Positions 26,366 through 29,751 of a stretch of DNA of 40,874 bases are shown piece after piece (within the stretch, counting starts at the first letter, position 1; each line of letters starts with the position of its first letter). The stretch covers positions 1 to 40,874 of IMG/VR virus record IMGVR_UViG_3300044675_005678; one strand, 5' to 3'. This DNA is from a virus. The notes beneath the pieces were generated by a model. The model worked only from the letters and a program-made list of their open reading frames with translations, was not told the DNA's origin and made no database searches. The translations under genes and the position numbers were made by a program.

Positions 26366-26448
26366 GCCGAGGTGGTGTAAGGGTAGCCACGCAAGACTTA
26401 AAATCTTGTGGACAGATGTCCGTGAGGGTTCGAATCCCTCCCTTGGTA
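26366..26448 (+). tRNA. tRNA-Leu(UAA)
   Basis: An 83-nt cloverleaf with a long variable arm. Acceptor GCCGAGG pairs with CCTTGGT (two G-U pairs); anticodon stem CAAGA/TCTTG encloses loop CTTAAAA with anticodon TAA (26399-26401); T arm GAGGG-TTCGAAT-CCCTC. No encoded CCA. It reads UUA and UUG, the codons an AT-rich genome uses for Leu. Confidence 0.93.
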
Positions 26449-26495
26449 CACGTACTATTATTCTTTAAAAAAATAATCGTAAACTCCTTTAATTT

Positions 26496-26569
26496 GGACC
26501 CATAGCTCAGTAGGTTAGAGCAACTGACTCATAATCAGTTGGCCCCTGGTTCGAGTCCAGGTGGGTCCA
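26496..26569 (+). tRNA. tRNA with CAU anticodon, probably Met
   Basis: A 74-nt cloverleaf: acceptor GGACCCA/TGGGTCC, anticodon loop CTCATAA with anticodon CAT (26530-26532), T arm CCTGG-TTCGAGT-CCAGG, no encoded CCA. The acceptor and D arm look like elongator Met; tRNA-Ile2 with lysidine has the same anticodon and cannot be excluded by eye. The acceptor stem is fully paired, so it is not initiator-like. Confidence 0.9.
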
Positions 26570-26583
26570 CACAATATGATAAT

Positions 26584-26915: not shown

Positions 26916-26923
26916 TATATTTG
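26916..26923 (+). promoter_or_regulatory. Bacteroidota-type -7 box for the giant RNA
   Basis: TATATTTG matches TAnnTTTG exactly. Transcription would begin about 26928-26931, at the start of the structured region; the A/T-rich upstream stretch lacks a clear TTTG at -33. Confidence 0.6.
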
Positions 26924-26929
26924 TTAAAT

Positions 26930-27882
26930 AATTCAGGACAAAGGTTCTGAAAAAAAAGAAAAAGTTCTTTGAATTAAAAATATTGGCCGCCTATGGTCAT
27001 TTAAAATAAACCATGAAAGTGGGATAAAGTGAATCAATTGGTTGATTGATTTGCGGTTTCAGTAATGGAACTCGAGTAGGCAAACAGAATATCATTAAAC
27101 CTTAAGTACCGAGGGTAACACTATAGGGAAAGTGGTTTGATGACCAAGCAATCCGAGTTGTTTGGTTGAGGTGGGGACACCAATAAGAATAATCTGTAGA
27201 GTTATTACAAGAAGTAAGACCTCCAATCTTATAATTGTGTGATTCAATATGACGGGTATCTTAAAACCGAAAGGTATGATGAAAAACAGGTGGTGCTGTT
27301 GTCATCCTTAATTAAACTATACCAATGGTTTAGTTTTGAAGATGTCCAAAAATATGGTAGCAGGGATGTTACAGAGAGTAGTTTAGTATCAGGTCGTTCA
27401 AAAGATGGCTTGGCTGGCAGATGGGCCACTACTTTCCAAATTCGGAACCAAACAAACTTTGTTAAAATGGTTTAACAACTAATAGATACAAGGAAAAGTG
27501 CCCATCAGTCGTTGGAGACAGGTGACTACACAGTCGAGAGGGGTTCTCGGCCATGAAGGGTCCCAAGCCCAACATGATTTTTAAGAAAGTTCTCTAGTCC
27601 CGCAAGGATTAATTGGGGTGGCAACCTCGAAGAGTAATTAGTATTAAAAGAGTATCTAACGACTTAAGGATTGGTTAATCTAATTGACCGTCATTGACCG
27701 GTACATCTCAAAAGGATGTGGATGAGAGAAGAAACAATAATGTCTCGAAGTCGGTTGTTAAAACTTGTAATCTCAGAGTTTTTATTTTTTTCAATTTAGT
27801 AAAATTGAATGGTGGATGAGACCTCATATACTTTACGGTGTGGCCCCAAATTAAGTCAGAAATTTGTTTTTCTGACTTTTTT
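26930..27882 (+). ncRNA. Giant structured non-coding RNA, about 950 nt (GOLLD/ROOL-like class candidate)
   Basis: A protein-free stretch bounded by a -7 box and a terminator, visibly richer in G than its surroundings. A possible closing helix pairs 26983-26991 (TTGGCCGCC) with 27837-27849 with bulges. Local helices include 27168-27172/27219-27223 around 27188-27192/27202-27206; 27285-27289/27296-27300; 27314-27319/27331-27336; 27374-27382/27428-27436 (9 bp); 27535-27539/27545-27549; GGGGT-GGCA-ACCTC at 27615-27628; GATT-GGTT-AATC at 27669-27680; and 27703-27707/27715-27719. ATTGACCG occurs twice (27683, 27693). GOLLD and ROOL are known giant RNAs of similar size found in phages next to tRNAs; membership is inferred from size and setting, not from a recalled consensus. 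No RNase P, group I or group II core was found. Confidence 0.75.
27853..27882 (+). terminator. Terminator of the giant RNA
   Basis: AAGTCAGAAA (27853-27862) pairs with TTTCTGACTT (27869-27878), followed by a T run. Confidence 0.9.
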
Positions 27883-27890
27883 TATTTATA
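27883..27890 (+). promoter_or_regulatory. TATTTATA motif upstream of the phosphoesterase gene
   Basis: Exact sense TATTTATA directly after the giant-RNA terminator and 8 nt before the ATG at 27899. It shows that the motif follows the coding strand and is not tied to one strand. Confidence 0.55.
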
Positions 27891-29333: not shown

Positions 29334-29751
29334 GGGGGTGACAGGAATTGATTGACGTAGTTAGTCATACGGGGCACGTAGTCAAACTTCATCTATGACT
29401 TTAATCTATGATGGAACAATTTAAACGGCAACGTTTATTCACAAATGGAAGTATTGGGTCTTGTATCCACTCCTTCTACTGTAGAAGTAGCCTAAGGTAA
29501 AACTACAAATGGGTCGACTGGACATGTAACCTAGAAACAGAAGTCCTCTAAGGTGTGGTACCTACCCAAAAAGGTATAGCGGTCTCGTTCAGAGTGCTAC
29601 CGTAGTATAAGTGAACTCGACACAGTTATTGGTAACGATGTCAAAATAGGAACCGAATATTTTGGAGAGTATGAAAAACTCTAACCTAAACGTGTAGTCC
29701 TTTATGGTTAGGACGGGCAAGACCAGCGTTCGAATCGCTGCACCTCCACCA
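29334..29751 (+). tRNA. ssrA: tmRNA (transfer-messenger RNA) with atypical tag
   Basis: A 418-nt tmRNA. The 5' end GGGGGTGACAGG pairs with the 3' end CACCTCC followed by encoded ACCA; the acceptor keeps G3-U70, the alanine identity pair. T arm CAGCG-TTCGAAT-CGCTG. The resume codon is GGC at 29427-29429 (nt 94), preceded by TAAAC, matching the U/A spacing before known resume codons and the GGC start of Bacteroidota tags. The tag is 22 codons, GNVYSQMEVL...STVEVA, then TAA at 29493-29495. Typical tags are about 8-15 residues and end ALAA. It would rescue stalled ribosomes and add this tag. Confidence 0.93.

What the first reader, a model, noticed from the sequence alone, without database searches (positions are those of the whole stretch)
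26930..27882. About 950-nt ornate non-coding RNA between tRNAs and a phosphoesterase gene
The sequence shows a host-type -7 box, nearly 900 nt with no credible ORF, many local helices, a possible closing helix joining both ends, and a strong terminator. GOLLD and ROOL are the known giant phage RNAs of this size that sit beside tRNAs, and recent structures show that such RNAs form multimeric cages. This could be a Bacteroidota member of one of these classes or a new class.
Basis: partly seen in the sequence, partly recalled or inferred. Interest (0 to 1): 0.88.

Follow-up and report, generated by a model that had tools for sequence, protein, structure and literature searches.

The report
Phage GOLLD cage RNA, rRNA-style leader
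The stretch is a gene for GOLLD, a known giant phage RNA that builds hollow RNA cages; in this phage and nearly all of its relatives it starts with the same short signal that bacteria put in front of their ribosomal RNA genes, which suggests how phages manage to make it in bulk.

Summary
Window 27374-27779 matches Rfam GOLLD (RF02032) over the whole model, 303 bits, E 5e-86. The about 390 nt upstream, which Rfam does not model, form the GOLLD 5' domain. Across 59 non-redundant full-length homologues, 206 pairs are predicted and 162 show double compensatory changes; 96.5% of cells are paired, against 38-44% when partners are slid. Contacts that hold the published 14-mer cage together (bridges B7 and B8) co-vary or are preserved here. 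No reading frame is conserved. The proposed closing helix is not supported.

The new part lies just upstream. The 9-mer GTTCTTTGA lies between promoter and RNA in 54 of 58 homologues; about 0.2-0.3 are expected by chance. The same 9-mer sits in five of eight Bacteroidota rRNA operon leaders examined. I read it as the boxA antitermination signal, placed after a Bacteroidota-type promoter and a hairpin, as in rrn leaders. No held paper mentions both GOLLD and boxA. Verdict: a new member of a known kind, with a probably unreported rRNA-type transcription leader. Cage formation, boxA function and biological role are inferred, not shown.

The parts
26916..26923 (+). Bacteroidota-type -7 promoter box TAnnTTTG (TATATTTG)
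   Evidence: sequence; the box recurs 20-90 nt (mostly 34-36 nt) upstream of boxA in nearly all homologues
26932..26951 (+). leader hairpin TTCAGGAC-AAAG-GTTCTGAA between promoter and boxA (boxB-like position)
   Evidence: 8-bp stem; other loci have different-sequence hairpins in the same place, e.g. ATCGGA/TCCGAT
26964..26972 (+). boxA-like antitermination element GTTCTTTGA
   Evidence: 54 of 58 homologues against 0.2-0.3 expected; 8 of 12 in a separately collected set, the other 4 with GTTCTTTA; identical 9-mer in Bacteroidota rrn leaders
26984..27373 (+). GOLLD 5' (cap) domain, not covered by Rfam
   Evidence: present in every homologue of the first set with enough upstream sequence; 109 pairs, 86 with compensatory double changes; own covariance model also finds a diverged clade at E 6e-6
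27153..27157 (+). 5'-domain hairpin loop that co-varies with 27441-27445 (contact between 5' domain and start of linker)
   Evidence: pairs GC47/AT5/CG3/GT3, TA44/CG14, GC50/AT4/CG4/GT1, GC56/AT3 over 59 sequences
27374..27779 (+). GOLLD 3' (ring) domain = Rfam RF02032
   Evidence: 303.3 bits, E 5e-86, model 1-416 of 416; 95 pairs, 76 with double changes
27446..27490 (+). variable linker (expected inside the cage), no tRNA in it
   Evidence: gap of 45-70 nt between conserved blocks in all homologues with both domains; no tRNA inside
27492..27493 (+). J13/15 side of kissing contact B7
   Evidence: 27493-27563 is GC36/CG20/AT3, 59 of 59 complementary; 27492-27564 GC57/TA2
27563..27564 (+). L20 side of kissing contact B7
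   Evidence: as above
27602..27605 (+). L21a loop GCAA, self-complementary dinucleotide (bridge B8)
   Evidence: GC in 50, CG in 8, both in 1 of 59; never neither
27782..27850 (+). 3' tail with hairpin and conserved GGTGGA, specific to the window's clade
   Evidence: aligned tails of 11 relatives
27853..27884 (+). intrinsic terminator (AAGTCAGAA...TTCTGACTT + T-run)
   Evidence: terminator scan; conserved in nearest relatives
26366..26449 (+). tRNA-Leu (TAA), upstream neighbour
26496..26570 (+). tRNA with CAT anticodon (elongator Met or Ile2 type), upstream neighbour

Best explanation
This is a GOLLD RNA gene of a phage that infects Bacteroidota. SHOWN by sequence: a full-length GOLLD 3' domain, a homologous and strongly co-varying 5' domain, a short linker, a terminator, and in front of it a leader built as promoter, hairpin, boxA. 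INFERRED: the host's NusB-S10 (NusE) complex binds boxA on the nascent RNA and joins RNA polymerase, as it does on rRNA operons. The polymerase then resists Rho-dependent termination on about 0.9 kb of untranslated RNA, and the complex may help the RNA fold. The product folds into a 5' cap and a 3' ring and self-assembles through kissing loops (L20 with J13/15, L21a with L21a) into the 14-mer cage known from GOLLD env-38, with the linker inside. What the cage does is not known. The likeliest role, held weakly (about 35%), is to hold or shield a part of the translation machinery during infection, because GOLLD genes lie by tRNAs and (here) a tmRNA, and GOLLD was reported to bind ribosomes.
For: GOLLD 303 bits, E 5e-86, complete model (again). 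In the first set all loci whose contig reaches upstream carry the 5' domain. 206 pairs, 162 with double compensation, 96.5% of cells paired against 38-44% slid. B7 contact complementary in 59 of 59 through GC, CG and AT; L21a loop always holds GC or CG, Fisher p 4e-9, not corrected for relatedness; both contacts are described as intermolecular bridges of the GOLLD cage in PMC12286853. boxA: 54 of 58 leaders against 0.2-0.3 expected, 8 of 12 plus 4 near-identical in a separately collected set, also in a clade with a strongly diverged 5' domain. The same 9-mer lies 122-223 nt before 16S in five Bacteroidota operons and again before 23S in three. It shares GYTCTTT with the gamma-proteobacterial boxA consensus GYTCTTTAANA (PMC5725501). 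Spacing from boxA to the 5' domain varies from 11 to 105 nt, so it is a separate module.
Against: No expression, binding or structure data here. Cage formation is carried over from one GOLLD (env-38) whose sequence I could not obtain. Three of eight Bacteroidota rrn leaders examined (Flavobacterium, Chryseobacterium, Flammeovirga) lack the exact 9-mer. Phage-host linkage is indirect. Sequences are related, so counts are not independent events.
Confidence: 0.8

Rival explanations
1. GTTCTTTGA is not boxA but part of the GOLLD fold or of an extended phage promoter.
For: It always lies close to the RNA and to the promoter.
Against: Its distance to the 5' domain varies 11-105 nt while its distance to the promoter box is often constant (34-36 nt); it persists with a diverged 5' domain and precedes tRNA arrays in the same phages; Bacteroidota rrn leaders have it both before 16S and before 23S.
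Confidence: 0.15
2. The RNA is a GOLLD by descent but no longer forms a cage, for example it acts as a monomeric sponge or regulatory RNA.
For: Cage formation is known from one GOLLD only, and the 5' domain differs between GOLLDs (PMC12286853).
Against: Intermolecular contacts B7 and B8 are kept by compensatory change, which a monomer would not need.
Confidence: 0.12
3. A new class of giant RNA, or ROOL.
For: The 5' half is outside every Rfam model.
Against: Complete GOLLD model match, no ROOL match; the 5' half goes with the GOLLD 3' half in every upstream-complete homologue of the first set.
Confidence: 0.01
4. A decayed protein-coding region.
For: A 78-aa ORF can be read at 27239-27475.
Against: Stop-free in 4 of 59 homologues, length changes that break the frame in 38 of 59, ORF lengths as in shuffles; pairs, not codons, are conserved.
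Confidence: 0.01

Closest known systems
GOLLD RNA (Rfam RF02032), incl. env-38 of the cryo-EM cage (PMC12286853)
   Same: complete 3' domain, similar total length and domain sizes, phage gene near tRNAs, conserved B7 and B8 contacts, L27-J24/26 contact, pseudoknots
   Different: linker without tRNA; co-varying contact between a 5' loop and the start of the linker (27153-27157 with 27441-27445) that I could not compare with env-38; extra clade-specific 3' tail; rRNA-type boxA leader, not mentioned in that paper
ROOL RNA (RF03087)
   Same: giant phage or plasmid RNA, RNA-only cage
   Different: no match of the window to the model; no exact boxA near the one ROOL examined, plasmid pMP118
rrn operon leaders of Bacteroidota (promoter, hairpin, boxA)
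   Same: TAnnTTTG promoter box, boxA 9-mer, untranslated structured RNA downstream
   Different: drives a phage cage RNA instead of 16S-23S; boxA lies closer to the RNA (11-105 nt against 122-223 nt)

Membership tests
GOLLD | 3' domain matches RF02032 above the gathering score | tested here: met
   303.3 bits against 150, model 1-416
GOLLD | conserved 3' region preceded by a less conserved 5' region, total about 800 nt or more | tested here: met
   5' domain 26984-27373, 3' domain 27374-27779
GOLLD | secondary structure supported by covariation | tested here: met
   162 of 206 pairs with double changes; slid controls 59-85
GOLLD | sites of intermolecular bridges B7 and B8 conserved | tested here: met
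   59 of 59 complementary or self-complementary; assignment to B7/B8 is by position and description, not by the env-38 sequence
GOLLD | encoded by phage, near tRNAs | tested here: met
   virus record with terminase, portal, tail genes; two tRNAs upstream
GOLLD | forms a 14-mer RNA-only cage | not testable with these tools
   needs in vitro RNA and mass photometry or cryo-EM
GOLLD | expression rises during phage lysis | not testable with these tools
   no transcriptome
ROOL | match to RF03087 | tested here: not met
   no ROOL match in the window
rrn-type boxA leader | boxA sequence identical to that of host-phylum rRNA operons | tested here: met
   GTTCTTTGA in 5 of 8 Bacteroidota rrn leaders and in 54 of 58 GOLLD leaders
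rrn-type boxA leader | boxA in the transcript, downstream of promoter and a hairpin | tested here: met
   26916-26923, 26932-26951, 26964-26972; transcription start itself is predicted, not mapped
rrn-type boxA leader | binds NusB-S10 and prevents Rho-dependent termination | not testable with these tools
   needs binding and reporter assays

The most novel reading that the evidence does not exclude
Bacteroidota phages have taken over the rRNA transcription system for their cage RNA: GOLLD (and tRNA arrays in the same phages) are transcribed by a NusB-S10-modified antitermination polymerase at rRNA-like rates, and the same complex helps GOLLD fold and assemble during synthesis, as proposed for rRNA.
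Probability: 0.45. Interest if true: 0.75.

Novelty: new member of a known kind. Interest (0 to 1): 0.57.

Why it matters
GOLLD makes one of the largest natural RNA-only structures known, yet its function is unknown. A conserved rRNA-type boxA leader offers an answer to how phages make a long untranslated RNA in bulk without Rho stopping it, links the cage RNA to the ribosome-making machinery, and turns that into simple tests (mutate nine bases, measure RNA and phage yield). The collected set also gives independent evolutionary evidence for cage contacts in a phage group beyond the one solved structure, extends a homologous 5' domain over dozens of phage contigs including 634-642 kb phages, and supplies a 5'-domain model that Rfam lacks.

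Tried and rejected
Closing helix between both ends: rejected, its 3' partner is missing in most relatives. tRNA in the linker: none in the window or the 59 relatives; one in a high-G+C GOLLD (L308). GOLLD in bacterial chromosomes: one strict pattern scan of genome contigs gave three chance matches, none GOLLD, which fits virulent phages, but the pattern was narrow. ROOL comparison: two degenerate viral scans found no ROOL; the single ROOL with known sequence (pMP118) shows no boxA, so I cannot say whether boxA is general for cage RNAs. Flavobacterium phage immuto (nearest named phage by terminase) has no GOLLD. Weinberg 2009 (original GOLLD paper) is not held, so earlier mention of the motif there cannot be excluded. 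RNAalifold pairs 26985-27443 and 26986-27442 (columns 18-677, 19-676) compete with the better co-varying 27153-27157 with 27441-27445 and were set aside.

Full report
WHAT IS THERE. A covariance search of the window finds GOLLD (RF02032) at 27374-27779 on the + strand: 303.3 bits against a gathering score of 150, E 5e-86, model positions 1 to 416 of 416. No ROOL match appears. Two tRNA genes lie upstream and a tmRNA downstream at 29334-29751. The window is a 40.9 kb virus record. It carries terminase, portal, tail, endolysin, RNA ligase and Lon-like protease genes. Its terminase is closest to that of Flavobacterium phage immuto, at 28% identity, which has a T4-like portal beside it.

EXTENT. 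Rfam models only the 3' half. I collected homologues from IMG/VR with short patterns from the 3' domain and profile searches. In the first set, 97 loci had the 3' domain and 91 also had the window's 5' domain; the six without it are cut off at the contig edge just upstream. So window 26984-27373 is the GOLLD 5' domain. The 634 kb and 642 kb phages LR745206 and LR756502 have it too. A separate clade (L255, L273, L286) has a diverged 5' domain that the nucleotide profile misses, but a covariance model of window 27082-27246 finds it at E 6e-6 to 4e-5 in the right place. Two high-G+C GOLLDs (L308, L332) are not matched by that model; L308 carries a tRNA inside the linker, as PMC12286853 says some GOLLDs do.

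STRUCTURE. Fifty-nine sequences under 92% identity were aligned. RNAalifold predicts 206 pairs, 162 of them with at least one double compensatory change. Of all cells, 96.5% are paired, against 38-44% when partners are slid by 1-3 columns; double-change cells number 2260 against 184-418. The 5' domain (109 pairs, 86 with double changes) and the 3' domain (95, 76) are about equally well supported. The window alone folds at z = -6.9. No frame is conserved.

CAGE CONTACTS. A covariation scan outside the nested structure gave these contacts. (a) 27493-27563 (J13/15 with loop L20): GC in 36, CG in 20, AT in 3; next to it 27492-27564 is GC 57, TA 2. PMC12286853 reports L20-J13/15 as intermolecular bridge B7. 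(b) Loop L21a: every sequence has a self-complementary GC or CG (50 GC, 8 CG, 1 both). The same paper reports a GC/CG switch there as evidence for the symmetric kissing bridge B8. (c) 27723-27770 (TA 46, AT 13), fitting the L27-J24/26 contact. (d) Two pseudoknots, 27420-27426 with 27500-27506 and 27521-27526 with 27690-27695. (e) A 4-5 bp contact between a 5'-domain hairpin loop (27153-27157) and the start of the linker (27441-27445). I could not compare (e) with env-38. Assignment to B7 and B8 rests on position and description. Conservation of contacts between chains argues that these RNAs assemble, but no assembly was measured.

LEADER. Upstream of the 5' domain, GTTCTTTGA occurs within 200 nt in 54 of 58 homologues; 0.2 are expected from Markov shuffles and 0.3 from its rate elsewhere in the same loci. 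Allowing GTTCTTT[GA]A, 56 of 59 have it within 200 nt and 57 within 500 nt. A set found with a different pattern gives 8 of 12, and the other four read GTTCTTTA. The diverged-5' clade also has it. Distance to the 5' domain varies from 11 to 105 nt, while a Bacteroidota promoter box TAnnTTTG lies 20-90 nt, mostly 34-36 nt, before it, usually with a hairpin between. I then looked at rRNA operons of eight Bacteroidota found in the plasmid collection. The identical 9-mer lies 138, 122, 223, 217 and 176 nt before 16S in Aureibacter, Persicobacter, Segatella and two Prevotella, and again before 23S in three of them; Flammeovirga, Flavobacterium and Chryseobacterium have only variants. The gamma-proteobacterial boxA consensus is GYTCTTTAANA (PMC5725501). 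BoxA is necessary and sufficient for the rRNA antitermination complex, which resists Rho and may act as an RNA chaperone (PMC10250234). The same motif precedes tRNA arrays in several of these phages. I conclude that the phages use the host's rRNA-type leader for GOLLD. No held paper contains both 'GOLLD' and 'boxA', and the cage paper does not mention boxA; the original 2009 paper is not held.

MECHANISM. Shown: gene layout, structure, conserved contacts, leader motif. Inferred from known systems: NusB-S10 binding at boxA, processive transcription of untranslated RNA, self-assembly into a cage. The function of the cage is not known; a role by the translation machinery is a guess from the neighbours (tRNAs, tmRNA, often an initiator-type tRNA) and from the reported ribosome pull-down.

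LIMITS. Sequences are related, so counts overstate independent events. Host assignment is indirect. The window is a fragment. The literature held is open-licence only.

Noticed in passing
window 29334-29751 (+): Phage-encoded tmRNA (Rfam 66 bits) downstream of GOLLD, the metallophosphoesterase and a 226-aa protein; relatives L217, L107 and L038 also carry a tmRNA.
   Followed up: partly
L002, L012, L018, L085, L092, L110, L116, L121, L128, L149, L157, just upstream of GOLLD: The nearest upstream tRNA has anticodon CAT in 13 of 15 loci that have an upstream tRNA within 2 kb; in 11 of them it looks initiator-type (GGCTCATAACC anticodon arm, several with a 1:72 mismatch), unlike the window's elongator or Ile2 type.
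   Followed up: partly
L002 (622 nt before GOLLD), L057, L160, L173, L209: GTTCTTTGA, often behind a TAnnTTTG promoter box, also precedes tRNA arrays in these phages, so the rRNA-type leader is not confined to GOLLD.
   Followed up: partly
L189:3840-4008: Three CRISPR-like repeats (about 36 nt, spacing 66 nt) lie between a boxA leader and the GOLLD gene of a 91.5 kb viral contig.
   Followed up: no
leaders of L172, L201, L208, L229 (and similar in L180, L219, L255): Between boxA and the 5' domain these carry AACACCTCCCTTTCT or close variants, resembling the 3' end of Bacteroidota 16S rRNA (GGAACACCTCCTTTCT) that holds the anti-Shine-Dalgarno. May be chance or mimicry.
   Followed up: partly
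L308:7252-7324 (-): tRNA inside the GOLLD linker of a high-G+C phage; L332 seems to have a tRNA-like stretch at the same place.
   Followed up: no
L229 (14520 bases): Contig carries two inverted GOLLD copies with equal scores and looks like a palindromic assembly artefact.
   Followed up: no
window 27782-27850: Clade-specific 3' tail: co-varying hairpin followed by a conserved GGTGGA before the terminator; a similar GATGGTGGACTC motif stands before another boxA in L028 and L221.
   Followed up: no
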